From contig LGRX02027633.1 in the NCBI GenBank assembly GCA_001247695.2, forward strand, positions 1 through 64,000: DNA of 64,000 nt. Direction: 5' to 3'. The notes beneath the pieces are model-generated. The model saw only the letters and a program-made list of their open reading frames with translations, was not told where the DNA came from and searched no databases. Of the stretch, positions 37,147-57,475 are shown piece by piece. The DNA is from Cymbomonas tetramitiformis (lineage: Eukaryota > Chlorophyta > Pyramimonadophyceae > Pyramimonadales > Pyramimonadaceae). The position numbers were made by a program, and so were the translations under genes. How positions within the stretch are numbered: the stretch's first letter is position 1; each line of letters starts with the position of its first letter.

Positions 37147-39060
37147 GCCGCCTCCGTCGCCTCCGGGCCCGCTCAGCCCGGCCCCGCTGTTGTGCTGCGT
37201 CAACCTCCTCTCGCCAACTCTTTCTACCCCGATTATGGCGGAACACTTACGCAGATCGCGCAGCAAGCCGTGGCCATGCGCGTCGAAGGCGGTTTCTTGC
37301 CGCCTCCGGCTGTCGACGCTGCTCCCAATTTTATGCAGGCGGCCGCCTCAGTCGCCCCCAGGCTTGGTCCGCCCGATCCCATGGTTGTGTTACGTCAACC
37401 ACCTTTCGACATATCCCACCCCGATGCGGGCGGAACTCTTACGCAGTTCGCGCAGCAAGCCGTGGCGATGCGCACTGAAGGCGGCATATCTCCTCCTCCG
37501 GCGGTCGACGCTACTCCCAACTCTCTCCAAGCGGCCGCCTCAGTCACCACCCGGCTAGATCAACCTGACGCCGTTCCTGTGCTATGTCTCCCACCTCTCG
37601 ACATATCCCACCCCGATGATGGTGGAACACTCACGCAGATCGCGCGGCAAGCCGTGACCATGCGCATCGACGCCGGCGTATCGCCCCCTCCGGCCATCGC
37701 CGCGGAGCCCTTTATCTTTCAGGCGCCCGGCGCCTCGGTTGCCACCCTCAGTACTCCACGTTCGCGCCGAAAGTCTTCGACTCCTATTCGACGTTCTTCT
37801 AATTCGTCTGGATTGCAAACGACCACCCCACGTTCCGAACCCTTGTCCAAGACTTCCGCTCGGGGTGAGCCACTAAGTCCTCTACGACCGCTTACTTTAT
37901 TCCAAGCTTTCAGGGGTGGGTGTGATACCACTCGATCTGCGCGTTTAACCACGACGGACAATCCTCCGCCTACCCCACCGCCGATACCATCTCCGAGTAC
38001 GGTTCCTTGCATCTCGTCGCCTGCGCATGCACCAAGCCCGATGGACCGTTTACTCCCCGGGCGAATGCTAAATGACGAAATTGTGGATTTGTATCTAGCG
38101 TACCTACGTCACGCCGAGAAGCAACGACAATCATCTGGCCAGGCCCCACGTATCCACTATTTCTCGGCTAGGTTTTATACGAAGTTAACGGAAGTATTCA
38201 ACCCCGACCATCGGACGCACGCGGTGCAACTAGTGGGAGACACGTTCGTGGACATTACACCACCTGGTTCTCAGGAGCCCATGGCCATAGACCCACAAGC
38301 CGCCCCCGTGTACAGCCGCAATGTGCGCAGTTGGAATACCGAGCGCGCATTGGGGTATGACATAACGTGTTGCGATATCTTCATGGTGCCTATCCACCAT
38401 CCTGGGGACCCGGGGCATTGGTCATTATTCGTGGTTGACGTTCCACGGAGCTGCATCACCAAGTACGATTCCATGTGCAACGTGCACGATCCCGAGGATA
38501 TTTGCTTCATCAATCTAGAAACATTTATGCGTGAGGAATTCGCCGCACACAATTCTGCACGCCTCTCGGGTGTCACTTGGTGTAGGCAGACCGCTGTTGA
38601 CGCCCCTCAGCAACATAACAACATCGATTGCGGGGTCTACGTGCTGCTCAACGCCACATGTATTTCTAAAGACGAACCTCTCAGCTATACCTTCGTTCAC
38701 ATCGCCCCCGCCAGATCCACCATCTCCGAGCGCATCTTGAGGCACGGTGAGCAGTTGTCGACTGAGCGACACTTGCGTATGAAAGGCCGAGGGCGGGCTG
38801 GAAAGCGTCGTAGCTCCCTTACTTCATCCTCACCATCGATTTATACCCCGAGAACCTTGCGGCGGAGCTCCAACGCTCGTCGCCAACGAGCCCGACGCTC
38901 CCAGCCCGGGGTGACGGAATGCGAGACTCAAGGCAAACGAGACCGTCGCTCCCAACCCGGGGTGAAGGAAGCCGAGGCTCAAGGCCAACGAGCCCGACGC
39001 TCCCAACCCGGGGTGAAGGAAAGCCGAGCTCAAGGTGAACGAGACCGACGCTCCCAACCC

Positions 39061-39217
39061 GATGATCACATCTCGCCGCATTATTCACCTCGCCGCATGA
39101 TCACATCTCACGGCATTGCATCTCACCGCATGATCACATCTCACCGCATTATTACATCTCACCGCATTATTACATGTCACCGCATTATTTCATCTCACCG
39201 CATCATTTCATCTCACC
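39061..39217 (+). repeat. 18-bp-unit CACCGCAT array inserted in a coding sequence
   Basis: The coding repeat that should read CCCAACCCGGGGTGAAGGAA is split after CCCAACCC. The array lies between, and the rest (GGGGTGAAGG) resumes at 39218. There is no visible target duplication and no loss of host bases. The 157-bp length shifts the reading frame. Confidence 0.88.
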
Positions 39218-39719
39218 GGGGTGAAGGAAGGCGAGGCCGCAGGAGCGCAGCAGAAACGTCAAGATGAAAGGCGAGACGAGTTAGAACGGCGAATGCACGT
39301 AAACGAAACCCTCCCAAAAGCTTCAGCCTTCCCAACCCCGCAAGACTTGGCGGGATTCGAGCAATGGCCAAACATCGCGGTCGCTGCCTTATGGGAGAGC
39401 ACGGGCATCGCACGATACCGCCGACATGAAGAACTTTCCGATCCGGATGTACGGGAAAGTTATGTGAAAGAGATTGACGCCGCGGTGGTGACGGACGATA
39501 TTTTGCAGCGATGTGTGAGTGCGTATGTGGACAGTACGTCTAATAAGCGGACTTTGGCTTCGTGTGCATCGTGTGGCATCCGTGATGTCGATCGTGAATA
39601 CCGCAAAGATATCCCTTTGAGCGAGTTGCATGACTCGTGCGTCGAGCTTACACGGGTTGAGCGTGACGCTTACTTGGCGTTTGGAGAGTATCGTTCATGT
39701 TACTCTCGGTAAGGGTGTT

Positions 39720-41097: not shown

Positions 41098-44000
41098 GTG
41101 ATTCCGACCACTGTCCTTGATACAAGTGGCCGAGGAATGAATTTGAAAGTAAGTCCGTTGATGAGCTATGACCCACTTAAATGTGAGCGGGTGTGCAGCG
41201 ATGGCAGTGTACGCTGGGGATCCACTGAATACTTGGCTTCTGCACAAGATCCAGATGGACCCCTACTTCTGGTATTCTTTGCGTACTTGAAGGGACATCG
41301 TATCAAGGTGCTGGTGGATTCTGGAGCTTCAGATATATTCGTATCTGAAGACTGCGCCAGACGCTGCAAGTTGACTACGCGAAGTGGACCCGCTATGCGT
41401 GTGACTCTGGCGGATGGCTCAGTCAAGACGACTGGTCATGTGGCTTATTCTAAGTTCACTGCCAGAACCAAGACAGGGACCTATACTGAGCAATCTATGG
41501 CTATGCGAGTGCTACCCTTGGGCATCGCCGTGGACATGGTGCTGGGAGGGAAGTGGCTACGCAGCTTATCTCCCATTACGCTGGACTATGATGGCAATGG
41601 TTCAGTGTCCTTTTCTAACAAAAGGAAAGGAGGCGGTGCAGAGAGGGTTACCATTTCCGGGTGTAATCCTGGAATCAGTGCTGCCCCTGGAGGGAGGAAA
41701 GGGAAGCGACGAGGAGATCTGGATTGTGCGGGGCTGATTGACGAGGTGTTCCTCAATTCGGTGCAGTTGAAGAAATATCTAGTAGCCGCGGAGACGCGGA
41801 GACTCGCGGGAGACGCTTCTTCAATGCCGGCATGGTTGATGATGGCAGCGAGGACCCCAACCGGAGAGCCGGCTTTCAAGGTGGAAGCGGAGGATTTGGA
41901 CGTTGAGAAGGAGGACATCTCAAAGATTCCTATCGGCGCCAACGATGAACCGAAGAACCCTGTGTCGCAGCAGGACTCGCAAGATGCGGATGCCACTGCA
42001 GCGTGGAAGAAGAAGTTCAAGAATCTCTTCGACGAGTTCGAGCAGGAGCTGCGGGACTCTTTACCTTCTGGATTGGAAAACCTTCGGCACGCTGACGAAG
42101 ACCAGGCGAAGATTAATCTCAAGCCGGACAGAGAAGGAGGACCTCCTTGTAGAAGACCTTACAAGATGTCTGTGGAGGAGTTGCGTCAACTACGAGAACG
42201 TATTGAACAACTGGTGGAGAAAGGATATATACGACCCTCTTCGAGTCCGTATGCGGCTCCTTGTTTAATGGTACCCAAGCCAGGACAGCCCCATATCCTT
42301 AGGCTGGTGTGTGATTTCAGGCAACTGAATTCACAAACAATTCGAGACCGATATCCTCTACCTGATATTCAAATGATGTTTGACGAGATGCAGGGAGCTA
42401 CCCATTTCTCCACCTTCGACGCTGTAGACGGGTTCTGGCAAGTACCTATGGCACCTGAGGACGTGGAGAAGACATCATTTACTACTCAGATGGGAGCCTA
42501 CGAGTGGCTGGTAATGCCTCAAGGCTTGCAGAACTCCCCGTCACAATACCAGCGGCGGATGCAGCGAGCGTTGGGACATTTACCCTTCGTCAGAATTTTC
42601 ATTGACGATGTATGTGTTTACACTAATGGGACTGTGGAGGAGCACTACTCTGCGGTACGTACATTTCTGTTAACATGCCGCGAGAAGGGTGTATACTTGA
42701 AGAAGTCTAAGGCTCAAATGTTGAAGTCTTCTATCAAGTTTCTTGGTCACACTCTGTCGAAGGAAGGATGCCAACCTCAACATGATAAGGTGGCGGCAGT
42801 GCGCGATTGGCCTGCGCTGGAGAATGTTACCCATGTGCGGCAGTTCTTGGGACTGGCGGGATATTATAGGCGTTTCATCCACTGCTTCTCTGAGATAGCG
42901 CAGCCCTTGACCAAGCTGACCAAGAATGATGTACCCTGGACATGGGGACCGGAGCAGCAGTGGGCCTTTGAGGAGTTGAAAGCTGCTCTGGTTAAGGCGC
43001 CTATTCTGGCATTGCCAAATATGAAGGCGGCAGCTGATGGATCCGCTCCTTTTCTGGTGCAGACAGACGCTAGCGGAGTGGCGCTAGGCGGGGTCCTTAT
43101 GCAAGACTGTGGGAATGGCCTGAAGGTGATTGCATATGAGAGCCGACAATTTTCAGCGGCAGAGCAGAATTACCATACTGGAGAGCGAGAACTGGGAGCT
43201 CTACATCATTGCTGTACAGTGACGTGGAGACATTATTTGATTTTCACGGAGTTCAAGCTTCAAGGTGATCACCGCCCATTAGAGTGGTTAATGGAGCCGG
43301 GGCGTGAGCTATCTAGACGACAGGCGAGATGGTACATGGACTTGGTGGAGGTGGGTGTTCCCCGTATGGAATATGTGAAGGGGGCCCTGTTGCTGGTACC
43401 CGACGCCTTGTCACGCCGACCTGACTATGTGGCCAAGTCGCCACGAGAGGGGTTGAAGGAGGCAGGGGTATTGGACGACAAATCCGATTTACCCAAGACT
43501 TCGCTCGCTGCGATGGACATCTCCCACGTCTTCGAAGAGGGGCCCTCGAAGAGCTATCCTGCATGGCATGCAGAGCAGCAGGCTTATCTTCACGCGGTGG
43601 ACACTTTACAGATAGCAGAGACAGCCATGGAGGCTACTCTGGCCTTTAAAAGTCGGGGGAAGTATCTGAGACCCGAGACGCTGGACAAGCGCATCACTTC
43701 TAAAGTGAAAAGGGTATCTGATAAAGTTGCAAAGGTGAGCAGTCGCACCGAGGACACTCAGACGACTCAGCAGGTGTCGGGTGGACTGGAACGCACATTG
43801 AGGAGGAGTCCCCGCTCCCAAGTGTTGCGAGTGAAGGAGGAGGTAGAAACTCCTTTGCGGGATGCCGCCTCGGAACGAGGCGAAGTGAACACCAAAGTGC
43901 CCAAGCAGGGTAGCCCGCAGGACAGGCGTTCTGTGCCTTCTGCCCTGAAAGGGGATAAGAAGGAAGACCAGTGCTCAGAAGTGCAGGAACCGTCTGCAGA

Positions 44001-44883
44001 AGCTCCACTGCCATCGCAGAGACAGCCAAGGAAGTCTGTGCGGTTCCAGGCAGTTGGCTTGCACGGTATGCGTGTGCGGCAGGAGGTATTTGACCGTATC
44101 CAGGCTAAATATGGCAACTTCGACGTCGACGCCTGCTGCGATGAGCATGGCAACAATCGGCGTGTCAAGCGGTTCTGGGACAACTGCTTACAGGAAAAGT
44201 GGAGAGGGTTACATGTGTGGTGCGAACCCTCGTTCTCAGATAAACACTTGACAGTGGAGGCCTTGCTGCGTCATTACGTGCAGGAGTGGCGATGTGACCC
44301 CGAGAACACTTCTGCTGTGTTCCTACTGCCTGATATTCAGTCCAGAATGCCGCAGTGGAGGTCCCTGTTCAGGCGAGCAGGGATGCGTATTGAGGAGGTG
44401 ATTCCCACGCATGATGCGCAAGGTGAACCAGTACAATTGATGGAGGGTTCCAATGGGAAATTACTGGATTTACAGCAGCCTATGCTGGTGGTATATGCGC
44501 CTCCATCGAAGCAGCGAGTCCAAAGAGTACGTCAACCAAGAGGACGAGTACCTATAATACACGCAGGCAAAGCAGCCAAATTGCGTGACTCTCAGGAAGG
44601 AGCGTCTGATGCTGCTTTCTTAGAGGCCTTGAAGTCCGAATATGCTAGAGATGGACCTCTCAATGAGCTACGCACTAAGATAAAGGGTGCTCCTCACAGC
44701 CGCACCAAAGAATTCTGTCTGGTGGGTGAAGTACTGTGGAGAACTGCATCGGGAAGATTTCAGTTGGTGCTGGGAGAGGACTCTCCGCTGAGAGAGATTG
44801 TCATGCGCGAAGCGCATGAGTCAGCGACAGCTGGCCATACTGGCCGAGATAAAACGCTGGAGCGTGTTCTGCGAAGGTTCTGA
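41098..44883 (+). CDS. Ty3-2 pol part 1: protease, RT, RNase H, Dam-like methyltransferase
   Basis: 1261 codons. Aspartic protease with VDSGASDIFVSED (Asp at 74). RT: RLVCDFRQLNSQTIRDRYPL, FSTFDAVDGFWQVPM, MPQGLQNSP, catalytic FIDD (about 502-504). RNase H: VQTDASGVALGG (Asp about 657), ERELGALHH, QGDHRPLEWL, PDALSRRPDY. Then a ~220-residue linker and a domain like phage N6-adenine methyltransferases at about 985-1150: GNFDVDACCDEHGNNRRV, EKWRGLHVW, CEPSF (about 1042-1046) where active enzymes have NPPY/F, and NTSAVFLLPD. The catalytic motif is degraded here but intact in Ty3-3. The ORF ends at a TGA (44881) inside the integrase zinc finger, where Ty3-3 has Trp. The same frame continues at 44884. 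Confidence 0.85.
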   Translation: MIPTTVLDTSGRGMNLKVSPLMSYDPLKCERVCSDGSVRWGSTEYLASAQDPDGPLLLVFFAYLKGHRIKVLVDSGASDIFVSEDCARRCKLTTRSGPAMRVTLADGSVKTTGHVAYSKFTARTKTGTYTEQSMAMRVLPLGIAVDMVLGGKWLRSLSPITLDYDGNGSVSFSNKRKGGGAERVTISGCNPGISAAPGGRKGKRRGDLDCAGLIDEVFLNSVQLKKYLVAAETRRLAGDASSMPAWLMMAARTPTGEPAFKVEAEDLDVEKEDISKIPIGANDEPKNPVSQQDSQDADATAAWKKKFKNLFDEFEQELRDSLPSGLENLRHADEDQAKINLKPDREGGPPCRRPYKMSVEELRQLRERIEQLVEKGYIRPSSSPYAAPCLMVPKPGQPHILRLVCDFRQLNSQTIRDRYPLPDIQMMFDEMQGATHFSTFDAVDGFWQVPMAPEDVEKTSFTTQMGAYEWLVMPQGLQNSPSQYQRRMQRALGHLPFVRIFIDDVCVYTNGTVEEHYSAVRTFLLTCREKGVYLKKSKAQMLKSSIKFLGHTLSKEGCQPQHDKVAAVRDWPALENVTHVRQFLGLAGYYRRFIHCFSEIAQPLTKLTKNDVPWTWGPEQQWAFEELKAALVKAPILALPNMKAAADGSAPFLVQTDASGVALGGVLMQDCGNGLKVIAYESRQFSAAEQNYHTGERELGALHHCCTVTWRHYLIFTEFKLQGDHRPLEWLMEPGRELSRRQARWYMDLVEVGVPRMEYVKGALLLVPDALSRRPDYVAKSPREGLKEAGVLDDKSDLPKTSLAAMDISHVFEEGPSKSYPAWHAEQQAYLHAVDTLQIAETAMEATLAFKSRGKYLRPETLDKRITSKVKRVSDKVAKVSSRTEDTQTTQQVSGGLERTLRRSPRSQVLRVKEEVETPLRDAASERGEVNTKVPKQGSPQDRRSVPSALKGDKKEDQCSEVQEPSAEAPLPSQRQPRKSVRFQAVGLHGMRVRQEVFDRIQAKYGNFDVDACCDEHGNNRRVKRFWDNCLQEKWRGLHVWCEPSFSDKHLTVEALLRHYVQEWRCDPENTSAVFLLPDIQSRMPQWRSLFRRAGMRIEEVIPTHDAQGEPVQLMEGSNGKLLDLQQPMLVVYAPPSKQRVQRVRQPRGRVPIIHAGKAAKLRDSQEGASDAAFLEALKSEYARDGPLNELRTKIKGAPHSRTKEFCLVGEVLWRTASGRFQLVLGEDSPLREIVMREAHESATAGHTGRDKTLERVLRRF

Positions 44884-47094
44884 TGGAGAAATGCATACCA
44901 AGATGTGGGAGAATGGGTTGCCTCCTGTTCAGTTTGTCAGGCGGTGAAGCCCAGATCATCCTTTCCAGATGGATTGCTGAACCCGCATTCTATTCCAACT
45001 CGGGTATGGCAGGATGTGGGAGTGGATTTCGTCACAGGCCTACCTTTAACTGAGCAAGGCAATGACGCATTTGTGGCATTTACATGCAAACTGTCTAAAA
45101 TGGTACATGTGGTTCCTATGAATTTTGGGGACAGCTCTGCTGCTACAGTGGCACGTATCTACTTTGACACGGTGTGGAGACAACATGGAGCTCCGATGAA
45201 AATAGTCAGTGACCGTGATCCACGCTTCCAGGATATCTTCTGGAAGGAGTTGATGAGATTGATGGGTGTGAAGGTGGCGATGACTACGCCCTACAACCCT
45301 CGCTCTGATGGTCAAGCGGAGCACACTAACAGGGTGGTGGAGGACATGTTGAGATCGTTTGTGGAGGACAATCCGGAGTCCTGGGACTTATACGCTACAA
45401 ACGTAGAGTTCGCAATCAACGATTCGCGTAATGATGTTACAGGCTTCACTCCATTTGAATTATGTTGTGGTGTGTCGCCCATGTCGCAGCTTGACATCTT
45501 CTTGGAGGCCGCCCAGTTGCACAGCGGGCGACTAAAAGGAGGGGTGGGGACTGCACATGAATGGGCGTCGAGATTTTCGTCGCAGTTGCGGGACGCACGC
45601 AGCAAACTTGAGCTAGCACAACGCAGGCAGCGAGACGCTTTTGATCAGCGACACACGCAGCGGGAGTATGCGGTAGGTGACTTGGTATGGATTGAGGCTA
45701 AACATCTCACGGAGAAGTTGATGGACAGAGCCTTGTGCCGCAAGCTGAGCAAGCGGTGGCATGGTCCAGTTGCAGTTACGGAACGCTTTTACAGCGATCT
45801 GCAGGCGGAGATGCCTGAGGCAGACAGAGGGGCACCAGTGGCGTATAGACTGAAGTTGCCCCCACATTGGAGAGTGCATGACGTGTTCGCGCAGCACAGA
45901 TTGAAACCTTACACAGGTGGAGAAGACACTTTCGCTCTGCGACAGCAGACAGTGACACCTGAAGCAGTGATGGTGGACGGACAGAAGGAGGCTCATGTAG
46001 AGAAAATCCTGAGCCGACGCGTACGCGTGAGCAGGGGCAAGGAAATAGAGGAATGGAAGGTGCGATGGACCGGGTTCTCTAAAGCCCATGATCAGTGGAG
46101 AACGCGTGATAAGTTAGAGCGCGGTGCCCCATTACAACAGTTGCGGGATTTTGAAGAGAGACGCCTAGCAATGGAACAGCAGGTCAGAGATTCAGCTGCG
46201 CGAAGAAGGGAACATCGACGACATCAGAATGTTGCGTCAATAATGACAGCGGACAGTGGGACATTAGTGCAGCAATTATCAGCGCAGTTCTGGGGTATGT
46301 CTAACAGTTCTGCGAGTGCGTGTCTTCCATGGGAAGAGCAACACTTTACCGATTCTGGAGAAGTGGCGTATGTGACTGAGTTATCGCCAGCTCCGGTAAA
46401 ACCTATCAGAATACTGGTACTCTTCAGTGGCACTGGCTCAGTTCAAAGATCCTTCTCAGAATGCTTCCCTCAGGCACAGACAGTGTCTTTAGATTCTGAT
46501 AAGTTCTGGCGATCTACGCATGTCACCAGAATTGAAGATTGGGAATATTGGAGCTATTACCCTCCTGGATATTTTGATGTAATATGGGCGAGTCCACCAT
46601 GTACCCAATATAGTCAAGCGCGAACTACTGGAGGACCACCAGATTTAATATCTGCAGATGCTTGTGTAGAACGCACCCTTGACATCATCGAATATCTCAG
46701 ACCGCGCTATTGGTTTCTGGAAAATCCAAAAGGGCGATATCCCAATGCTTTGCGGTTCAGACCTGTAGTGGATCAATTACCTACCCCCTTGTTTTGCTCA
46801 TATTGTATGTACGGGGAAAAGTATAAGAAACCTACCTGTATCTGGACTAATGCGCCGCCCAGCGTACCACTGCGGGAATGTACCTCGCAGACTCCGTGTC
46901 CATGCAAATGGGCCACTGGAGTGCACCCCCTTACTGCTCAACTAGGGCCTCATCCAGATCAGCAGGGAATGCAGAATTCTCGCGCAGTATATCCTATACC
47001 TGCTAAGTTACTGAGAACCTTATTTCAGCGGCTATTTCTCAGGAATACAGGTGATGAAGATGCTGGGGTGACATCAGGAGAAAGCCACCCCTAA
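44884..47094 (+). CDS. Ty3-2 pol part 2: integrase, chromodomain, Dcm-like cytosine methyltransferase
   Basis: Continues the same frame after one TGA. It completes the integrase zinc finger (CSVCQAVKP). DDE core: Asp in VGVDFVTGLP, Asp in IVSDRDPRF, Glu in GQAEHTNRVVEDML. Next are the GPV/Y-like region (WHGPVAVTERFYS) and a chromodomain at about 363-415 counted from 44905 (AHVEKILSRR ... EEWKVRWTGFSKAHDQW). The last 220 residues are a C5 cytosine methyltransferase: motif I LVLFSGTGSVQRSF, motif IV ASPPCTQYS with the catalytic Cys (about 566), motif VI WFLENPKG (about 606), KKPTCIWTN, and a closing motif YPIPAKLLRTLF. All the key residues I can identify are kept, so this domain may be functional. 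The stop is followed within 15 bases by the polypurine tract. Confidence 0.87.
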   Translation, partial: WRNAYQDVGEWVASCSVCQAVKPRSSFPDGLLNPHSIPTRVWQDVGVDFVTGLPLTEQGNDAFVAFTCKLSKMVHVVPMNFGDSSAATVARIYFDTVWRQHGAPMKIVSDRDPRFQDIFWKELMRLMGVKVAMTTPYNPRSDGQAEHTNRVVEDMLRSFVEDNPESWDLYATNVEFAINDSRNDVTGFTPFELCCGVSPMSQLDIFLEAAQLHSGRLKGGVGTAHEWASRFSSQLRDARSKLELAQRRQRDAFDQRHTQREYAVGDLVWIEAKHLTEKLMDRALCRKLSKRWHGPVAVTERFYSDLQAEMPEADRGAPVAYRLKLPPHWRVHDVFAQHRLKPYTGGEDTFALRQQTVTPEAVMVDGQKEAHVEKILSRRVRVSRGKEIEEWKVRWTGFSKAHDQWRTRDKLERGAPLQQLRDFEERRLAMEQQVRDSAARRREHRRHQNVASIMTADSGTLVQQLSAQFWGMSNSSASACLPWEEQHFTDSGEVAYVTELSPAPVKPIRILVLFSGTGSVQRSFSECFPQAQTVSLDSDKFWRSTHVTRIEDWEYWSYYPPGYFDVIWASPPCTQYSQARTTGGPPDLISADACVERTLDIIEYLRPRYWFLENPKGRYPNALRFRPVVDQLPTPLFCSYCMYGEKYKKPTCIWTNAPPSVPLRECTSQTPCPCKWATGVHPLTAQLGPHPDQQGMQNSRAVYPIPAKLLRTLFQRLFLRNTGDEDAGVTSGESHP

Positions 47095-47106
47095 GGGGGG
47101 GAGAGT

Positions 47107-47569
47107 TGTGCCAGGGGGCACGATAGACTGTCAATTACCCCCACGGAAGGGGGATCCGATTCAGATTACCGGCATATTGGGAGAAATATTGATAGGGAAT
47201 CTGAGATCGTGGATGAAGAATGCAAAATCAATAAATGTTATCTCTCTGGCAGAATCGTGAACGATAGAAATATTATTAGGAACGATTATGACAGAATCAA
47301 CGGTGTTGGTACAATACCGTGACAGATGACGATAGAGATGACATTTATGGCGGCGCAGGTTGGGGAAAAACAGGGATTCCTGTGACGAGAGAAACTAGCC
47401 GAACAATCTGTGCTATATAGTGACGAAACACGATTCCTTCGGGAGCTTTGTTACAGAATAAAAATGTTTTCGTAACACGGGCTGTATTGCATAATCACCG
47501 GTTGTGATATATATCGATTCGTATCCGATTACCCTGAAACTTCGTATATGCATTTGTGTGCCCGTGACA
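47107..47569 (+). repeat. Ty3-2 3' LTR (right end uncertain)
   Basis: Begins TGTGCCAGGGGGCA after the polypurine tract. Contains a TATA-like GCTATATAGTG (47411) and a poly(A)-like AATAAA (47457). The similar start TGTGCTAGGAGGCA in Ty3-3 supports the boundary. The right end is set at a CA near 47569 by inference. Confidence 0.6.
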
Positions 47570-47570
47570 A

Positions 47571-48694
47571 GAATTCTAGCGCTATACACTAAGCTTAACC
47601 TAGTTCTGTGTTTAACACTCCCTGCAAACCTTGAGCCGCACGCAGCGTGGCCATCCCACTATGTTTCCCAGATATGAGTTTCCTTTCACGAAGGGTCACT
47701 TTCACAAACTCTCAGTTTCGATCTTGCATGTTTGCTTTGTGTTGTCCCTTGCGGTTATGTGGGCTAATGCCATGTCGAAAGAAACCATCCCACTTCCTTA
47801 CGCCAACGACATCCAACGCGCCGAGGTTTTGGGCGATGGCAATCGGGCGCCCCAGTCACCCTTGATTTATTTTGCGCTTCGGCGAGTCACACCTCATCCT
47901 AATTCTAGTTTTGGACATGACGAAGTGGTTATGCGTGTCGTGCTGGATTCAGTACACCGTAGGTCATACCGTGCATGACTCCGTTCGACTGTACCAGTAC
48001 TCGTACAGTACTTGGTGACAGATACCTAGGTCACGGATGCATTATATATATATTCGTTTACCTTTATAATCAATTTACACTTGTATGAGAAACTATTCAG
48101 TGACCGCCCGATATAATACAGTATATTATATCTCACAGGTTATGGGCCCACCACGCTTCCACTGCGTGGATCCCTCTGACCTTGCTTCAACCTCTGAAAG
48201 CCAACGTCAAAATCCATCGGGAACGCATACACAAGAGGCTGATGGTGTCCCGATATTTTCGCGTAATTGCCTTTCGAATCAGCAAACGTTCGAGCCCATA
48301 CCTGATGTTGCTCGCGAACCTAGTCAATAGTTTAAGGACATGATTGTCGGCGTCCGTATGACAGATAGCTTTCATGGTCATGGAACTGTTGTTCTAGAGT
48401 GTGATAATCCCCGGTTTGCTGTCGATGAAGCGCCTAATAGTGCATTTGTTCGCTACGACAAGGATTCTCTCGTAACGGGAACGATACAAAGGCTTTTTGT
48501 GTGTGAATAAAGAGGTGGCATCTGAAGATCTCAACGAGCAAACAACCTCTTTGCAATTCGCTGACCAGGTTCGTTTTTTTCGCTTCCCTCGCTTACTTTT
48601 TGTGTTCCTTCAGAATTCCGATTAGCGAATTGCAGTCATCCCTTATAATCGATAGCAGGTATCGTAGGGTTCAGCTAGGAATTCATAAGATTAT
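47571..48694 (+). other. Degraded LTR-element remnant with a Copia-like primer site
   Basis: At 48127-48145 the sequence TCTCACA is followed by GGTTATGGGCCCACC, the same primer-site pattern as LTR-A, -B and -C, so an LTR end probably lies at about 48132. No partner LTR or gag was recognised. Short open frames here are not convincing. Confidence 0.4.
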
Positions 48695-51600
48695 TGTCAA
48701 GGTCATGACCGATGACATATGTGTCATACATGTCATACGTGTCATACCTGTCAGACATGTCATACCATGTCATATCATGTCGTGTCATATATTAATATGA
48801 CAGTCGACAGTACGGTCGATCATGACTGTACACGTCGAGTCGCGTCATATATTATTATGACAGTCGTCAGTACGGTCGACGATGACTGTACAGGTCACCA
48901 GATGATAACGTCACATCATCTGTCATTATTCAAGGAAAGACTTGAATGACCCTGTCATCGAGAGTTCGTACGTCGAACTCGAAGATGACAAAGCAAAGAT
49001 AACATCTTGAAGTACAAACAAGAACCATCTTCGCTTTTAGCATGCGCGGAACTCGCATGCGCAGCATGAACGAACTAGTCGTTATTACAATGCTGGTCGT
49101 TCAACCTACGTCTCGGGTTCACAACCCAATGGCGGTACCATCTAAGATGATGGGAGACGTATGGTATTAAGTGAGGAAGCGTTGTGCTTCAGCAGCTCAT
49201 TATCCAGAGACTGCACTCACACCCGCTATTCTGTTCACTTATGTATGCTGTCCAACAACACAGTGATTATCTGATAATATTGAATAATATACAGGGCTCG
49301 CATATCTGCCCTAACAAAATGGTATTCTAATTTAGCTCGTCAAGGCACGAACACGAGAACTCAAGTGGGTGCAGCGTCAGAAGTAAAATAGATCATATTA
49401 TCATATTGTTCGCAGGTTTGCAGGTGGGCGCATAAGCGACAGCGCTTGCAGCGATATCAAATATCTGCAACTCGAATAATATACGCTCGCATATTGTCAG
49501 TATACGGATTGCGCGAGGAGATTTTTCATCGCGGACATATTCGCATTTGACAGCATCAGCAGAGAAATTATCTTGATAATATAAGCGACAAGGTGTGCGC
49601 ACAGTATAATGATCGCGCACATATGATGTCAAAAACTCGCATGATCGTCACCATATGCGAGATCAAGACGCGCGAATGAAAAAATGTTTATCAGCATACA
49701 TGATCGCATCATCTGCGACAGTACGCACAATTTTCGTTAACAGCGCGCTCGAACTCTTTTATGCGACATGCATCAACGACGATGACATACTTTTGAAATG
49801 ATCGTCAGCATCGATTTTTGTGAATAATCCTTTCGCACTGTTCGCAATCATCAGCTCGTCGCACTGTTCGCAATCATCAGCGCGCACGATGATTTTTGGC
49901 CTGTCAGCACGATATGCATTTTCCATGATTTCACCAGATGCGATGAACGCTCGATTTTAGCGCGTACGATTTCTGATATGTCTACATGCAGTGAAATATG
50001 TGATATGTACGACGCGCGTCAACATTCAGAACAAATGTACACTCGCAGAGATACATGGAATGGACGCATGATAGACGTACATTTATTATACTGCTGTAGG
50101 CATCCATTTATTATACTGCTGTGGATACATTATCACTATGATGCTGTGAATGTACCATCATCACACTGCAGCAAATTACAATATCTTTTGATGACTGCAC
50201 AAATACTCTTAATCATCAGCATTTATGCTCATCAGCAGCACAATAATCTGTGCACAACATGTGTGTGCGGATCAGCACACACACACATGCACTCATTTCA
50301 CTCACAGCAATCATCAACATGCAGTGCATGCATTTTATACCATGCACATATCTTATGCTGAATGATTGCAACATTGTGAATTGTACATGCCTTACTATAC
50401 TGTGCAGCTTGACCACGATACCAGCTGTAGTACATAGTGCACAAGCATATTGCAGTGCATGCTAGTCTATATTTGAATCCATGTAGCAAAGGGTGCCTGA
50501 AGGTGGTTGTTAACATCATAATTAGCTCGACAAAGTCCTGACATGCATGTCGAGATACATGAGATGGACTTGTTGTTCTATGATGGATCACTGGAAGGAA
50601 TGCTCACCTGAGCTATATGTGAAATATACCCAACAACTCATTTTGTAATGAGATTATCATAGAATTACAATAATCCCTAAACTTGATATATCATGTTAGA
50701 TATATACAGTGCATGGTATGCTGACTATCTTGCATGATAAATTGTCAAGGGTATTGTAATATCCAGAACATATCCTACTGCAAAGTGTATACAAGTTATC
50801 TTACACACACACTTACAAAAGTACTGATCAGCAGTGCTGTGCATCACACACACACACTGGCATTCATTATACATATTGGCATTCAATGTATACAATAATG
50901 TAGGTACCACTTTCCAAACACATGTGCGTGGAAAGTGTCAGCGATGGTGATAGTAATGGTAAACAGGATAATACTACATGCTGAAGGGTTGGATGGAGTT
51001 ATCTCCAGACCCGAAGGCAAGATACTGCACCCATGAAACAGCTGGTAACTGTTGGGTGCAGTCCACTCGTCATTTCACATATCATCGCTGGAGCAACAAC
51101 AACAACTACATTGCATATTGACAGTTGATTCAGATTTGATCAGATCAAATGCATGCAACTCTCAGATCAGTATCTACATGACATCTGATAAAAGTTGTTG
51201 AGGACAGCACACACATACAAATGTGTTGTGTCAAATTGTTGTAATTATATCAAGCAATGTCCAGATATGTTCTAAATAAGAAATATCATTTTGATAAATC
51301 TTAGAGCACAGACCTATGCTCAGAACAGATCATAGATTGACAAATATCACTAAAGTGGACGTTCCTAACTGTATGTTCCCACTTAAGTTGATAAATCTAT
51401 ACATCATCAGAATGTACATTACTGCCATGGGTTTAAATCAGTAAAACCCAGAAATGCTGTCAACCATAGATGTTGATATACAGCACAATTCACTTATTTG
51501 CCATGAAATTTGTCATGTGCAAAAGTGAAGTATGTTGCAATATTCATGTAGCTTGCAACTTGCACACACACTGAGATATGATATATGTATCATCCGAAAA

Positions 51601-52462
51601 ATGGCTGAAAAAGGCTGTAAAATCGGTGAAAAACGTTGGCGATAAATTTCAAAACTGAAATTTCGACCCCATTTTATTTCAAATTATGATTTTATACCTA
51701 TTGAGGTATGTGAAAATCATAATGACCATGGTCATATCTCGTGTAACACCCTAGATATTAGGTGTGTAATATATAGGGGTGAACGTGTTGGCTGTAACAA
51801 TAAATCGGTCAAAATACAATACGTTGAATCTTTTGCAAATTCGGGATTGATTTTTTTTGCTATAATGGATATTTAGCTATCAAATAACAATCCCTGAATG
51901 GCTATTTACGTGTAACATCCTGTAACACCCTAATAATCGAATGCGTGTGTCAGGGGTGTAACGTACCCTCTGAAAAACACTTAACATTCACTTGGGTATT
52001 GAATGCAGTTTTGCTTAAAAAACCTTTGCAAAAATTTATACTGCTTATGTTTTACCTATTTTAGGGTTACTGATATCATGTAACACCCTAATCATACTAT
52101 TGGGTATTTGGGCCACTGTAACGTGATATGCCCTGAAATGCCACTGTAATTTCGATAAAACTTCGTGTTGGCGTTAATATATCATGCTGTTTTCATCACA
52201 GACATGATTATATGATGGGCAACAACCCAAGAACTGTGACAGATGCTTCCTGAAAGGATGCATGCTGATTATGAGGTATTGGCAATTGACAACTGCCACG
52301 ATATCACACACTTCCTTGAGGGGGGAAGAAGGTGGATATGTATATATACTTACCTCTTTATTATGTACTAATGTACTATATGTATGTAAACATACCGATA
52401 TACCATATATAACATATAAATCACACACACTCGGATAGGCAAATTAGCTGAAGGTATTTTTG
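48695..52462 (+). mobile_element. Inverted copy of Ty3-1 LTR plus leader, without gag-pol
   Basis: 48695-49316 matches the Ty3-1 LTR in inverse orientation (TGTCAAGG...CCTAACA). 49317-52462 matches its leader, diverged by substitutions and indels. The similarity stops at AAGGTATTTTTGTG, about 20 bases before the Ty3-1 gag start, exactly where Ty3-3's LTR begins. The copy is therefore cut off by Ty3-3 or by recombination. No gene is present. Confidence 0.82.
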
Positions 52463-52885
52463 TGGGAGTCTACATTCTTGCTTCTTCTCTTCTTTACGGT
52501 TTCGGACTTATCTTATCTACACTTATTAAACGACCGCACGAGGTATGGTTTCGATTGGTCTACTATCGGAATTCGGTTTCGTAATTCTTTCTAGTAATGC
52601 TTTTGCTTTCAGTGCATGCTTTCAATACACAATATACAGCAGTTACGGCTCTTTACTTTTATGTTACAATTCTCAGTTCAGTTCTCATCATCCGAAACGG
52701 GTTACACTTGGAGTTCTTATACATTCAGGAACTCTTTCCATAACTCAACTGTACTGAGTACTCCGTACAACAGGCTAGGCACCTCACATCAACATCATTC
52801 TGATCGGTCCTACTGTACTCCGTACTGAGTACTCTTGCGTTTTGTACTTAGCCGTTTTTCTTGCTCTTGTGCTTGCCTCCTAGCA
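52463..52885 (-). repeat. Ty3-3 3' LTR
   Basis: Minus strand starts TGTGCTAGGAGGCA after the polypurine tract. The far end is placed at TGGGAG/CTCCCA (52463), where the Ty3-1-like copy stops. Contains ACTCCGTAC inverted repeats. Confidence 0.65.
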
Positions 52886-53276
52886 CAACTCCCCCCTCCC
52901 CCCTTAGGGAAGGTCACGTCCACGCTGACCACGTCGGACCAGTAAAGTTTTTATACAGATCTTCTACTGTTGCTCAGGATGATTATACAGGTCTCAGCCG
53001 CCTGTTGTCTGGGATGACATTGCACTTCCCAAGACACACCGCAATAAGGAGATCAACCTCTTAAGCACAAGGGTCGGCCTCTCACCGGTCTGCCATCTGC
53101 ACTACCAGGCTCCCCCAAGGCTCGAGGTCTCACATCCATTACCACGCTCAAGGTTTTAAACCTTCCAACACGGTACACTTACAGGGGATGACAATAGGTT
53201 TGCCAATTACCTGACAGTTCTCGGGATGCCGGCCCGGAGGAAAGGTTTTAAACCTTCACCGCCTCCTCGGAGTGCG

Positions 53277-53652
53277 TAGAGCTTTTACCCAGATCTCCAA
53301 CTGCTGCCCGGTCGTGCCAGGTGCGGAGCCAATGCCCTCGTGAAATGGATTATACAGATTTCCACCTGTTGCCTGGTCGTACCGAGGCTAGAGCCACTGC
53401 TCGGTTGGATAGATTATCCAGGTTCACACCTGCGGCCTGGTCATACCGAGGCTTGGAGCCACTGCTCAAATGGATTATACAGATTTCCACCTGTTGCCTG
53501 GCTGAGCCGAGGCTAGAGCCTCTGCTCAAATGGATTATACAGATTTCCACCTGTTGCCTGGCTGTGCCGAGGCTAGAGCCACTGCTCTCTCGGATGGATT
53601 ACCCAGGTTCTCACCTGCCGCATGGTCTCGCCAAGGTTGGAGCCACCGCTCT
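53277..53652 (-). repeat. ~60-bp tandem repeats in the Ty3-3 3' region
   Basis: Six units, each with GATTATACAGATTTCCACCT, a CTGGTCGTACCGAGGC block and GGAGCCACTGCTC. They lie between the Dcm stop and the polypurine tract. Confidence 0.82.
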
Positions 53653-53674
53653 TCCCGACGCTCCTCAACGCTCT

Positions 53675-55003
53675 TCAATCGCTAAGACCACTCGCGTCAG
53701 ATTCCCATCCGCCCTCAGGTATAATCGTCACTTCAGCTCGTACTCCCGCTAACGCTATCGGTTCCGGTTCAAACTCGGGCGAGTCACACTCAACAACAGC
53801 TGACTGGACTAAAGCGCTCGTCTCGCTCAGATCCTCCCTGACAAGCAGTTCAGAAAGGAACGCATGCACCTCCTCATGTAGGGTCAGGTTGTGGAAAAGC
53901 TGTTTTAACAGTGCCGACGGAATCCCATACAAATTCTCTCGTGCTCCCATGCCCTTTGCGAACACACCCCCGGCTCTCTTCGCGCGCCCTCCTTGCGCTA
54001 CCTTCTCGTGCCTACCGTACTGCCGGAAGAACTCGCAAGGCGTGTCGGAATCGCACACTCGCAAGGGTGTGCGCAACGGAACGTTGGTCCAGATGTGCGT
54101 GGGCTTCCTGTATGCACTCCCGTATTTACAGTACGTGACAAGGTGCGGAGCTGGTAGATTGCTCATGCATCGACGCGTGTGCAAACCGTGGGGCTCTCTT
54201 CCCTTCGGATTCTCAATGAAGTATGCTTCGGGCCTCAAGTACCGGATGATCTCCAATGTCCTACGAACTCGCCTGTCCGCGGCGCGCAAATCTCGGATGC
54301 CTACCGTCTTCGCCTGGCTGTACTCTGTACAAGGTGGGCTAGCCCAGACTACGTCGAAGTGTCCTGGTCTGAACTGTCGGTAGTCCCATCGCATGATATC
54401 CTCGCAATGTGTGGGGCCCCACTTGGGCTGAATGTCTACGGCAACTACTTCGCTGTTGGGAAATTGCTTAGTGAACTGCCTCTCGACTGACCCGGTCCCA
54501 CAAAACAATACGAGAATCTTAGACTGGCCGACTGGTTCCTTCTCAAGTGCGGCGGCTCCGTTGACTGGCGGCAGGGTGCTCTGAGCAGATACTCTCGCGA
54601 AAGTTCCTACTTCCTCATCAAACCTCTCCTCTGGCACCCATGGCATTGCCCCGTCTACCTTGAGCTCCTCCGAGAGCGTGGTCCATACCGCTCCAGCGGA
54701 CTCGTCGCGCCTTTTGCGGACCCTAAGCTTCTCTCGCTCCACTCTCTTAGCCTCGATCCTCTCAAACTCCAACAACGCCCGGTTGGGAACGCCGGGCCTG
54801 CCGGCTCCGTCCCACTCCAGATCCTCTCGGGTCTTCCACTCGTTCTCACTGCGGGGCATTCCCGTCCACTTGACCAGGTACTCCGTCCATCTCCTACCCT
54901 GACGCTGGCGCGTGCGCGAACGCTCCACCCTCTCGACGTGGGTTTCCTTGCGCCCGCTGACGTCCAACGGAGGAGGGGGGATCTTCCTTAGCTCTCTCAA
55001 CAA
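53675..55003 (-). CDS. Ty3-3 pol part 2: chromodomain and Dcm-like cytosine methyltransferase
   Basis: 442 codons in a different frame from the integrase ORF, overlapping it by 110 bases. The chromodomain is at about residues 20-70 (THVERVERSR ... TEYLVKWTGMPRSENEW). The cytosine methyltransferase follows from about 165: ILVLFCGTGSVERQF, EVVAVDIQP, DVVWASPPCTEYSQAKT with the catalytic Cys, AYFIENPKGREPHG, RKPTHIWTN, and YGIPSALLKQLF. All the motifs seen in Ty3-2 are present. Known of the family: transfers methyl from S-adenosylmethionine to cytosine C5. Inference: made as part of pol and carried into the nucleus with the integrase. The frame change could be a translational shift or a mutation. 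Confidence 0.86.
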   Translation of the reverse strand: MLRELRKIPPPPLDVSGRKETHVERVERSRTRQRQGRRWTEYLVKWTGMPRSENEWKTREDLEWDGAGRPGVPNRALLEFERIEAKRVEREKLRVRKRRDESAGAVWTTLSEELKVDGAMPWVPEERFDEEVGTFARVSAQSTLPPVNGAAALEKEPVGQSKILVLFCGTGSVERQFTKQFPNSEVVAVDIQPKWGPTHCEDIMRWDYRQFRPGHFDVVWASPPCTEYSQAKTVGIRDLRAADRRVRRTLEIIRYLRPEAYFIENPKGREPHGLHTRRCMSNLPAPHLVTYCKYGSAYRKPTHIWTNVPLRTPLRVCDSDTPCEFFRQYGRHEKVAQGGRAKRAGGVFAKGMGARENLYGIPSALLKQLFHNLTLHEEVHAFLSELLVREDLSETSALVQSAVVECDSPEFEPEPIALAGVRAEVTIIPEGGWESDASGLSD

Positions 55004-57470
55004 AGCGGCTGCTCGACTCTACCGGCGAAAGCCGGTCCACGGTAAACACATCATGCACTTTCCACTGCTTAGGCGTCTGCAACCTATAGGCCGACGGTGC
55101 GCCTCTATCGCTCGCGGGAAGGGCCATCTGCCTGTCGCTGTGGAAGACTTCCAGCACCCGAAGGGGCCCGAGGCGCTTCTTAAGCAATTTCTTGTGCAAC
55201 TTGCGGTCGCCCGGCTGGGTGAGGTACGTGGCGTCCACCCAAACCTCATCGCCTACTGCGTAACTCCTGGACTTGTGACGCGCGTCGTACTGGGCGATCT
55301 GCTGCTGCTGAGCTAAGAGCAGCTTTTCCCTAGCGAGCTGCAACTGGCGAACAAATTGGCGGGCTGTCTCGTGGGCTGTACCCTTTTTTACTGCTGCGCC
55401 CCTCCCCCCCTTAGCTCGGCCTCTCCGTGATGCAAGTGCTGCCTCCACGAAGAAGTCCAGCTGAGAGGCCGGAGCGTGACCGTACGTCAGTTCAAAAGGG
55501 GTGAAGCCCGTGACGGCGGAACGGGAGTCATTAATGGCGTACTCGACCGGGGTACACCACAAATCCCAATCGTGCTGGTTGGCGTCGACATACGCGCGCA
55601 GCATGCGTTCGACCGTGTGGTTTGTGTGCTCTGCCTGCCCATCACCTTGTGGGTGGTACGGCGTAGTGGAGGCAACCTGGACTCCCATCAACCGATGTAG
55701 CTCGAGATGCATCTCATCCCTGAAGCGGGAGTCCCGATCGCAGACGATCTTCATGGGAGCGCCGTGCAAACGCCACACTTGGTCGAAATACATGCGCGCG
55801 ACCTGTGCAGCCGAGCTGTCAGCGTAAAGCATGGGGACTACGTGCACCATCTTGGACAGCTTGTCCGTGAAGGTAGCAAACGCGTCGTACCCTCGCTCTG
55901 TGCGAGGCAGCCCAGTGACGAAGTCGATGCTAACCACTTGCCACATTCTTACTGGGACTTGCAGGGGGTTAAGCTGACCGTCTGGGTACCCGTTGCGTGG
56001 CCGGGTCTGTTGGCACACGACGCAGGATTTGCACCAGTCGGTGACATCCTTGCTCATGCGTGGCCACCAAAAACGACGGGATACTCTGTCCAGTGTCTTA
56101 TCCCTTCCTGTGTGCCCTGCTGCAGGGGACTCGTGTGCTTCGCGCATCACCAGCTCTCTGAGAGGGGAGTCCTGAGCTAGCACTAGCTGATACCGCCCTT
56201 CCGCCACTCGCCATATCATGTCGTCCACCATGCGGAATGTATCTGTCCTCTGATGTGGGGCTGCGACCAGTTCTTCCTTCAACGAGCCGAGGTACGGGCT
56301 GCGTTCGTATTCCGCTTGCAAGGCACGGACGAACTCATCAGCCTTCAGTGGTCCTGATGCTGCCCTGGCCTTCGCTGCAACCCCTGTAGTGACTAAAGGC
56401 TCGTCGGGTTCTGCTTCACTGTCCTTTCGCGCAGGTGGCGCTCGGGGCTTTGCCCTGCTGGCCGCTGGGGCCCACACCAGAAGGACCGGCCAGCGCAGCG
56501 GGGGTCGACCTCCATCAGGAGACTCGAAGAGGTGGTTGGGACGACCTTTTTCGTCCTTCGTGTCAAAGACCTTGACCGGATGAAGCCCATACTTGGGGTG
56601 AATCAACCGCCTCCAGGGAGCGTCATAGTCTGGCAGAAGGAACATCGCTGAGGTGTTTTCTGGATCGGCGCGCCACTCAGCAAGGAAATGCCGAAGAATT
56701 CTTTCTATCAAGTCCGAATCCTTCGTGTAAGGGGGGTTACACCAAACGTGTTTCCCGCGCCACTTTTCCTTTAAGCAGTCGGTCCAATAGGTGTCAACCT
56801 GCCGGTTAACGCCCATGGAGTCGCAACACGCGTCAACGTCAAACATCCCGTACTGGGCCGCTATCTCCTCAAAGCGCTCCCTGATCAGCTTCCAGTCCTG
56901 GCGATCTACGACCTGGTCGTAGCGGGAGCTACCTTCTGGGGGCTTAACGTGCTCAGGTACCTTTCCGGTTACCTTCGGATGACTCTGGACTTCTGCTGTG
57001 GCCTGTTCCCTAGCTCGATCTGCTCTGGTCATAACTGCTAGCGATTCGGCATCCCTCAAGGACTTCTCGCCTACTGCTAGGGTGGCAGCTGCGTCCAGCC
57101 AGAGGGCCGGCGTCTCTACCCACGTGAGCCCATTAAGATGAGTGAGCTCACCAATGACCGGTGCCGGACTGGTGGGAGGGAAGGACTCGTCCTCGGAATC
57201 ACTATACTCGAAGGTGGCGCCTAAGACAGATGTGGGATCCTCGTCCTCTTCACATCTCTTGCCTTTCGGCTCAGAGTACTCGGGCCCATCTGTGGCGCGG
57301 TCCACTGCCCCGAGGACAGAGGTAGGATCCTCGTCCTCTTCGGACCCCTTACCTTTCGGTGCGGAGTCTCTGGGCCCATCTGTGGCGCGATCCACAATCC
57401 CTTTTTCCTTCAAACCTTCTCTAGCTGACATCTCCTGATAGTCTGGTCGCCGGGACTGCGCATCCGGTAC
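54894..57470 (-). CDS. Ty3-3 pol part 1: Dam-like methyltransferase and integrase
   Basis: Open from about 57470. The first ATG is at 57431, but homology begins before it with PDAQSRRPDY, the RNase H end. Two acidic 30-residue repeats (EEDEDPTSVLGA) lie in the linker. Dam-like domain at about 170-320: YGMFDVDACCDSMGVNRQV, EKWRGKHVW, intact CNPPYTKDSD (about 231-240), NTSAMFLLPDYD. Integrase: zinc finger HESPAAGHTG ... CVVCQQ, Asp in SIDFVTGLP, Asp in IVCDRDSRF, and Glu in GQAEHTNHTVERML. A GPL-type domain follows (KRLGPLRVLEVFHS). The ORF ends in a different frame just before the chromodomain, which lies in the overlapping ORF 53675-55003. Confidence 0.86.
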   Translation of the reverse strand, partial: VPDAQSRRPDYQEMSAREGLKEKGIVDRATDGPRDSAPKGKGSEEDEDPTSVLGAVDRATDGPEYSEPKGKRCEEDEDPTSVLGATFEYSDSEDESFPPTSPAPVIGELTHLNGLTWVETPALWLDAAATLAVGEKSLRDAESLAVMTRADRAREQATAEVQSHPKVTGKVPEHVKPPEGSSRYDQVVDRQDWKLIRERFEEIAAQYGMFDVDACCDSMGVNRQVDTYWTDCLKEKWRGKHVWCNPPYTKDSDLIERILRHFLAEWRADPENTSAMFLLPDYDAPWRRLIHPKYGLHPVKVFDTKDEKGRPNHLFESPDGGRPPLRWPVLLVWAPAASRAKPRAPPARKDSEAEPDEPLVTTGVAAKARAASGPLKADEFVRALQAEYERSPYLGSLKEELVAAPHQRTDTFRMVDDMIWRVAEGRYQLVLAQDSPLRELVMREAHESPAAGHTGRDKTLDRVSRRFWWPRMSKDVTDWCKSCVVCQQTRPRNGYPDGQLNPLQVPVRMWQVVSIDFVTGLPRTERGYDAFATFTDKLSKMVHVVPMLYADSSAAQVARMYFDQVWRLHGAPMKIVCDRDSRFRDEMHLELHRLMGVQVASTTPYHPQGDGQAEHTNHTVERMLRAYVDANQHDWDLWCTPVEYAINDSRSAVTGFTPFELTYGHAPASQLDFFVEAALASRRGRAKGGRGAAVKKGTAHETARQFVRQLQLAREKLLLAQQQQIAQYDARHKSRSYAVGDEVWVDATYLTQPGDRKLHKKLLKKRLGPLRVLEVFHSDRQMALPASDRGAPSAYRLQTPKQWKVHDVFTVDRLSPVESSSRFVERAKEDPPSSVGRQRAQGNPRREGGAFAHAPASG

Positions 57471-57475
57471 TCATG

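What the first reader, a model, noticed from the sequence alone, without database searches (positions are those of the whole stretch)
41098..57475. A Ty3/gypsy lineage whose pol carries both an adenine- and a cytosine-type DNA methyltransferase domain
Seen in two diverged copies on opposite strands (41098-47094 and 53675-57475): a Dam-like domain (FDVDACCD, EKWRG.HVW, NPPY) between RNase H and integrase, and a Dcm-like domain (FxGTGSV, SPPCT.YS, ENPKG) after the chromodomain. Cytosine methyltransferases in algal and dinoflagellate retrotransposons, and Dam-like domains in DIRS elements, are established. I do not know of an LTR element with both plus a chromodomain. Inference: the element may mark or protect its own cDNA, or set methylation at the insertion site, with the chromodomain choosing heterochromatin. 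Presence in two diverged copies argues against a one-off fusion.
Basis: partly seen in the sequence, partly recalled or inferred. Interest (0 to 1): 0.92.

Follow-up and report, generated by a model that had tools for sequence, protein, structure and literature searches.

The report
Jumping gene carrying two DNA methyltransferases
This genome, very likely that of the green alga Cymbomonas, holds hundreds of full or partial copies of a jumping gene whose replication protein carries two phage-like DNA-methyltransferase domains; the adenine-type one lacks its active-site motif in every sampled copy of one large family, and the element likely uses the cytosine-type one to mark its own new copies or their landing sites.

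Summary
The window carries two 5'-truncated copies of a Ty3/gypsy chromodomain LTR element whose pol has a phage-type Dam-like domain between RNase H and integrase and a phage-type C5-cytosine methyltransferase domain after the chromodomain. Both window copies are broken (a stop, a frameshift), but the same genome holds uninterrupted frames of 2,383-2,586 aa from protease to Dcm (three read) and at least 150 near-identical Dcm matches in each of two families (capped lists). It is not a one-off fusion or two adjacent genes. All 9 Dam-bearing elements in an integrase tree share one clade. Dcm keeps its catalytic motifs and is constrained (Ka/Ks 0.012 in five intact family A copies). The Dam motif is NPPY in copy 2 but CEPSF in copy 1 and in 14 of 14 sampled copies of its family, yet that domain is still constrained (0.084). 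So cytosine methylation is the safer function; the adenine domain may be non-catalytic there. Best mechanism: an integrase-tethered chromomethylase that would methylate new copies at heterochromatic targets. Activity is untested. New variant of a known kind (transposon-borne methyltransferases).

The parts
41098..44880 (+). Copy 1 pol, first open stretch: protease, RT, RNase H, Dam-like domain, start of integrase H2C2
   Evidence: homology to uninterrupted copy C7 starts at 41168
41284..41550 (+). Copy 1 aspartyl protease
   Evidence: PF13650 2.6e-10
42271..42756 (+). Copy 1 reverse transcriptase
   Evidence: PF00078 4.3e-28
43042..43347 (+). Copy 1 RNase H
   Evidence: PF17917 1e-26
44029..44514 (+). 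Copy 1 Dam-like domain; catalytic motif reads CEPSF
44881..44883 (+). In-frame stop, not shared by the uninterrupted copy in contig C7
44884..47094 (+). Copy 1 pol, second open stretch: rest of H2C2, integrase core, SH3, chromodomain, Dcm, stop codon
45022..45300 (+). Copy 1 integrase core
   Evidence: PF00665 5.6e-6 (below curated cut-off)
45994..46158 (+). Copy 1 chromodomain
   Evidence: PF00385 4.5e-6
46384..47058 (+). Copy 1 C5-cytosine methyltransferase domain (FSGTGSV, SPPC, ENP)
47093..47106 (+). Polypurine tract beside the 3' LTR (overlaps the stop codon)
   Evidence: sequence
47107..47569 (+). Copy 1 3' LTR, 463 bp, TG...CA
   Evidence: 99.7% identity with another genomic copy (L044) ends at 47569
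54897..57470 (-). Copy 2 pol, first open stretch: end of RNase H, Dam-like domain, H2C2, integrase, SH3
56454..56930 (-). Copy 2 Dam-like domain, motif CNPPY
55650..56168 (-). Copy 2 integrase: H2C2 (55995-56168) and core (55650-55940)
   Evidence: PF17921 4.6e-24, PF00665 1.5e-5 (core below cut-off)
53678..55018 (-). Copy 2 pol after a frameshift: chromodomain and Dcm
54815..54940 (-). Copy 2 chromodomain
   Evidence: PF00385 6.8e-8
53870..54538 (-). Copy 2 C5-cytosine methyltransferase domain

Best explanation
These are truncated copies of a high-copy Ty3/gypsy chromodomain LTR retrotransposon lineage whose pol frame carries a phage-type Dam-like domain between RNase H and integrase and a phage-type C5-cytosine methyltransferase domain after the chromodomain, and the integrase-chromodomain-methyltransferase end is predicted to act as a tethered chromomethylase that would add cytosine methylation to the new copy and its landing site. 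Shown: domain order, uninterrupted frames, copy number, shared clade, constraint on both domains, LTR and PPT (and, in one copy, a primer site). Inferred: the chromodomain would read a heterochromatin mark and bring the integration complex there; the C5 domain, on the same polypeptide, would methylate the cDNA or the flanking DNA, so that the new copy looks like resident silent chromatin. Inferred: the Dam-like domain, placed just after RNase H, would have methylated adenines of the cDNA; in family C1 it would persist as a nucleic-acid-binding or structural part without catalysis.
Confidence: 0.48

Rival explanations
1. Protection: the methyltransferases would modify element cDNA, or host DNA in trans, so that it survives nucleases, such as restriction enzymes of large algal DNA viruses; an antiviral role of this kind is proposed in PMC6338049.
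For: The nearest named relatives found for both domains are phage enzymes. The published Cymbomonas genome holds an integrated giant virus and many PLVs (PMC10675990, passages). PMC6338049 proposes an antiviral role for transposon methylases.
Against: No restriction enzyme was looked for. It does not explain the position right after the chromodomain, nor loss of the Dam motif in an abundant family.
Confidence: 0.2
2. The Dam-like domain acts on the element's RNA (N6-adenosine methylation, perhaps next to the cap), and only the C5 domain acts on DNA.
Against: The sequence families are DNA methylases (PF05869, phrog_111), and two named phage N6-adenine methyltransferases align through HVWLNPPYS. 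A shared fold does not name the substrate.
Confidence: 0.12
3. One or both domains are non-enzymatic: kept as DNA-binding or structural modules of the pre-integration complex.
For: CEPSF in 14 of 14 sampled C1 copies with continuing constraint; CSPPS in P0015.
Against: Catalytic motifs of Dcm are invariant in 32 of 32 aligned, and Dcm has the lowest Ka/Ks of the family A domains (5 intact copies); 16 of the 20 proteins of P0001-P0062 that match VWC.P.. keep NPPY or NPPF (P0008 with HAWCNPPY was missed by the pattern).
Confidence: 0.13
4. Artefact: misassembly, chance fusion, or two adjacent genes read as one.
For: Both window copies are interrupted.
Against: Uninterrupted frames in several contigs, NCBI, JGI and ENA proteins with both domains, shared clade.
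Confidence: 0.01

Closest known systems
KnitGypsy-Dnmt3 of Klebsormidium nitens (PMC5890265; passages read)
   Same: C5 methyltransferase inside the Pol frame of a Gypsy element, reported there under purifying selection
   Different: That domain is Dnmt3-type, with repeats arranged as in DIRS; the main text has no occurrence of 'chromodomain', and the passages seen mention Dam-like enzymes only for DIRS. Here the C5 domain's nearest named relatives are phage enzymes, and a Dam-like domain is added
DIRS1-like elements (PMC3266345; passages read) and SymbioDIRS-Dnmt3 (PMC5890265, passages)
   Same: RT-RNase H followed by a methyltransferase domain in pol
   Different: DIRS use a tyrosine recombinase; this element has an H2C2/rve integrase and LTRs, and a second methyltransferase
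Chlamyvir-related chromodomain Ty3/Gypsy elements of Cymbomonas (PMC10675990) and the >10,000x scaffolds with chromodomain, RNase H and cytosine DNMT (PMC5741210) (passages read)
   Same: Very likely the same elements, seen before in part: chromodomain pol, and a cytosine DNMT on very abundant scaffolds
   Different: The passages seen describe no Dam-like domain and no joint architecture; the main text of PMC10675990 has no occurrence of 'methyltransferase'
Plant chromomethylases (recalled, no call)
   Same: Chromodomain coupled to a C5 methyltransferase
   Different: Host enzymes without RT or integrase; different C5 subfamily
T1-like phage Dam-like N6-adenine methyltransferases and Bacillus phage C5 methylases
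   Same: Nearest named sequence relatives found (25-26% and 31-32% in alignments 118 and 119); shared NPPY, ENP and YC.YG...KPT motifs
   Different: Free-standing phage genes
Sola transposon ParB-methyltransferase proteins in algae (PMC12477816; passage read)
   Same: Transposon-borne DNA methyltransferase proposed to mark its own element
   Different: DNA transposon, separate gene, other domain partner

Membership tests
Ty3/gypsy LTR retrotransposon | PR-RT-RNase H before integrase in one pol frame | tested here: met
   (frames of C7, C860, C24590)
Ty3/gypsy LTR retrotransposon | Direct LTRs with TG...CA ends, PPT and tRNA primer site | tested here: met
   Family A copy C3710: 1366-bp 3' LTR TGTACC...GGTACA; the other LTR, as far as fetched, 97.2% over 1153 bp, followed by TGGTATCAGA. 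That 10-mer was in 1 of 6 stretches searched; the others need not reach a 5' LTR. Window copy 1: 3' LTR and PPT only; no TGGTATCAGA in the window
Ty3/gypsy LTR retrotransposon | gag | not tested
   No HMM scan was run on the part before the protease of C7 or family A
Ty3/gypsy LTR retrotransposon | Target-site duplication | not tested
   No copy was fetched with both outer flanks
Chromovirus | Chromodomain after integrase | tested here: met
   PF00385 over cut-off in both window copies
Chromovirus | RT/integrase phylogeny inside chromoviruses | tested here: inconclusive
   Integrase tree of 24 sequences, midpoint-rooted, hardly any named references; PMC10675990 calls such a pol related to Chlamyvir
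Phage-type Dam (PF05869) | HMM score over curated cut-off | tested here: met
   33.8 and 35.0 bits, cut-off 28.1
Phage-type Dam (PF05869) | Catalytic (N/D/S)PP(Y/F/W) motif (recalled): copy 2, families A and B | tested here: met
   CNPPY
Phage-type Dam (PF05869) | Catalytic (N/D/S)PP(Y/F/W) motif (recalled): copy 1 and its family C1 | tested here: not met
   CEPSF in copy 1 and in 14 of 14 sampled copies including it
Phage-type Dam (PF05869) | N6-adenine methylation of DNA | not testable with these tools
   no activity or modification data
C5-cytosine DNA methyltransferase | Motifs I (FxGTGS), IV (PPC), VI (EN) | tested here: met
   32-sequence alignment: SPPC and ENP invariant, motif I nearly so
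C5-cytosine DNA methyltransferase | PF00145 score over curated cut-off | tested here: inconclusive
   22.9 bits (copy 2) and 16.9 bits (copy 1), cut-off 22; P0013 25.8 bits
C5-cytosine DNA methyltransferase | Fold of C5 methyltransferases | tested here: met
C5-cytosine DNA methyltransferase | Motif VIII arginine (recalled) | tested here: inconclusive
   column is H/C/N/Y/other here and varies in phage relatives
DIRS | Tyrosine recombinase instead of DDE integrase; split or inverted repeats | tested here: not met
   H2C2, rve and SH3_Tf2-1 matches and direct LTRs

The most novel reading that the evidence does not exclude
A retrotransposon that carries its own dual methylome writer: an integrase fused to a chromatin reader and a C5 methyltransferase, with a Dam-like adenine methyltransferase beside RNase H, so that one polyprotein copies, places and epigenetically labels each insertion; at hundreds of copies or more it would be a major source of 5mC, and in the NPPY families 6mA, in this alga.
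Probability: 0.3. Interest if true: 0.92.

Novelty: new variant of a known kind. Interest (0 to 1): 0.74.

Why it matters
Transposon-borne methyltransferases raise the question why a parasite would encode a mark that hosts use for silencing. Here the two chemistries sit in one pol, families differ in which catalytic motif they keep, and many near-identical copies exist, so the question can be tested inside one genome. If the Dcm is active on integrated copies, it would be a natural integrase-chromomethylase fusion, and the element rather than the host could shape the alga's methylation.

Tried and rejected
Complementary loss: I first thought that family A had lost its Dcm by a frameshift while C1 had lost Dam. 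Reading the copies showed the Dcm complete in 5 of the 7 family A copies in which motif IV was found; the shifts in C17313 and C18147 differ from each other and are not shared. Dropped.

Ka/Ks values that I do not use, because the copies were picked by that very domain: C1 Dcm (0), family B Dcm (0), family A Dam and its N part (0.040, 0.032). Kept values are for domains not used for picking. Family A Dcm there uses only the 5 copies without frameshift (0.012); with 8 matches, frameshifted copies kept, it is 0.092, and its N-terminal part 0.025 over 7. The family A Dam C half is too small to say much (0.084, bootstrap 0-0.36, 5 against 2 codons).

Footprint of methylation in copy differences: C/T differences are highest before G (17.7 per 1000 C against 6.8-15.7 in family A; 8.6 against 4.8-6.5 in family B), most at CCG; mild, unpolarised, confounded by codon positions. 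PMC12695648 (passages) reports prasinophytes with high 5mCG and no CpG depletion, so a weak footprint says little either way. Inconclusive.

The Dam alignment A3 found no confirmed relative there (30 stretches), and P0022 no match. No named eukaryotic virus donor was identified. A comparison with DIRS Dam domains was not made.

The Dam piece against PDB sequences gave only an unrelated match at E 0.41; the tRNA scan of the window gave none. Foldseek searches of 'pdb' and 'viral' were not accepted. Whether the P0022-type (PHD) family is in this genome, how many C2-type copies it has, and how common CEPSF is genome-wide could not be asked (unanswered searches below).

That I found no description of the joint architecture in print rests only on searches of an open-access library; subscription papers, preprints and Repbase entries were not seen. 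PMC6338049 (parts 1 and 2 of 4 read) says DAM- and DCM-encoding Ty3/Gypsy and DIRS elements were revealed in green algae and other groups, without this architecture. Passages of PMC9998398 and PMC3350952 gave nothing on it.
Full report
What is there. The window lies in an 851.7-Mb assembly of 25,745 contigs. Proteins named CYMTET_* of Cymbomonas tetramitiformis are up to 98% identical to copy 2 (P0006 over 65% of the query; P0063), so the host is very likely this prasinophyte green alga; the genome itself is unnamed, and its size differs from the published 914.3 Mb. Copy 1 (+) reads protease, RT, RNase H, Dam-like domain and the start of H2C2 in 41098-44880, a stop, then integrase, SH3, chromodomain and Dcm to 47094, a polypurine tract, and a 463-bp 3' LTR to 47569. 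Its homology to the uninterrupted copy in contig C7 begins at 41168. Copy 2 (-) begins at the end of RNase H (57470) and runs through Dam, integrase, a frameshift, chromodomain and Dcm to 53678.

One reading frame, many copies. Uninterrupted frames with all domains were read in C24590 (2383 aa), C860 (2586 aa) and C7 (2423 aa). Protein records with both domains in one chain include P0005, P0011, P0013, P0014, P0015, P0016, P0019 and P0022. P0013, a JGI record, has a Dcm 100% identical to copies of this genome, so it is no independent species; P0015 and P0022 (unnamed ENA records, 52% and 42% identical to copy 2 over 81% and 50%) are more distant. P0022 carries a PHD finger between Dam and integrase. 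Family A has a 1366-bp 3' LTR with TGTACC...GGTACA ends, an LTR partner 97.2% identical over the 1153 bp fetched, and TGGTATCAGA just after it, the sequence of a methionine-tRNA primer site as I recall it; this 10-mer was seen in 1 of 6 stretches searched. Copy 1 and another copy are 99.7% identical over 2665 bp, so recent movement is likely.

Selection. Ka/Ks by a Nei-Gojobori count, for domains that were not used to pick the copies: family A Dcm 0.012 (bootstrap 0-0.037; 5 copies without frameshift; 20 codons synonymous-only, 1 changing), RT 0.038 (7 copies), integrase 0.076 (9 copies); family C1 RT 0.028, integrase core 0.037, Dam 0.102, RH-Dam spacer 0.515 (0.25-0.96) (2 copies). Keeping frameshifted family A copies gives Dcm 0.092 over 8 matches. 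With 14 C1 copies the Dam-like domain gives 0.084 (0.02-0.20; 15 synonymous-only, 7 changing codons). Twelve of these were chosen from the 17 with long open frames, and all have near-identical Dcm, which excludes stops but not amino-acid changes in Dam. Pairs of copies are not independent.

The adenine domain is not always equipped. Among the 20 proteins of P0001-P0062 that match VWC.P.., 16 have NPPY or NPPF, 2 SPPY, 1 SPPS (P0015) and 1 EPSF (copy 1); P0008 (HAWCNPPY) was missed by the pattern. All 14 sampled C1 copies, window copy 1 and C7 included, read CEPSF with the domain open. The aligned Dcm sequences show no such motif decay. I therefore rank cytosine methylation as the likely core function and treat adenine methylation as family-dependent.

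History. In an integrase tree of 24 of the 46 sequences offered (22 were dropped because the cutting rule did not find the stretch or it was too short; midpoint-rooted), the 9 Dam-bearing elements fall in one clade of 11 (UFBoot 98), inside a group of 14 (UFBoot 61) in which all but P0010, which ends before that place, show a Dcm. P0068 and P0123 in the clade and P0087, P0095 and P0096 outside it start after the place of Dam, so they cannot be scored for it. The other 10, among them the third gypsy element of this window, show neither domain by motif. Distance matrices agree: Dam-integrase r 0.82 (n 10; 1 of 2000 shuffles), Dcm-integrase r 0.80 (n 10; 0 of 2000), Dam-Dcm r 0.50 (n 8; 29 of 2000). 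Splits agree only in part (3 of 7, 5 of 7 and 2 of 5 shared, with some well-supported differences), so exchange between elements is not excluded.

Known work. Burns et al. 2015 (PMC5741210, passages) saw chromodomain, RNase H and a cytosine DNMT on the most abundant Cymbomonas scaffolds; Gyaltshen et al. 2023 (PMC10675990, passages) named a chromodomain Ty3/Gypsy pol related to Chlamyvir. De Mendoza et al. 2018 (PMC5890265, passages) described a Dnmt3 in a Gypsy pol of Klebsormidium and in DIRS of Symbiodinium, and noted Dam-like enzymes in DIRS. PMC6338049 (parts 1 and 2 of 4) says DAM- and DCM-encoding Ty3/Gypsy and DIRS elements were revealed in green algae among others. The two-methyltransferase chromodomain pol was not found in my searches. 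I file it as a new variant of a known kind. (The names of authors are partly recalled.)

Mechanism. Shown: architecture, copy number, constraint, motif loss. Inferred: the chromodomain brings the integrase to marked chromatin, the adjoining C5 domain methylates the new copy or its flank, and the Dam-like domain modifies cDNA, or RNA, or only binds it. Nothing here measures methylation; existing nanopore reads could decide.

Noticed in passing
window 21893-27213 (-): A third Ty3/gypsy element: gag, protease, RT, RNase H, integrase, chromodomain, spread over several open stretches, with no Dam or Dcm match in them: a built-in methylase-free comparison.
   Followed up: partly
window 35971-39267 (+): 1098-aa open frame with 192-bp tandem repeats (98-99% between three units) and a Ulp1-type C48 peptidase domain (PF02902 4.6e-23).
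   Followed up: no
window 60528-61769 (-): 413-aa frame that looks by eye like a tyrosine recombinase (no Pfam match); an exact 80-bp repeat at 59695 and 60509 overlaps its end.
   Followed up: no
L009-L016, L024-L026 (family A): The pol frame of family A holds arrays coding 7-aa HATxxxx-type repeats before the protease and between RNase H and Dam; similar arrays lie downstream of pol in the LTR region.
   Followed up: no
protein P0022 (unnamed ENA record): Relative with a PHD finger (PF00628 3.4e-13) between the Dam-like domain and integrase, so a second chromatin reader; whether this genome has it could not be asked.
   Followed up: partly
protein P0125 (unnamed record): 609-aa protein with an NPPW adenine-type motif and a C5-type Dcm in one chain, no retroelement domain seen by eye: another two-chemistry methylase.
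   Followed up: no
window 53343-53636: Minisatellite just downstream of copy 2 Dcm; the LTR of copy 2 was not delimited.
   Followed up: no
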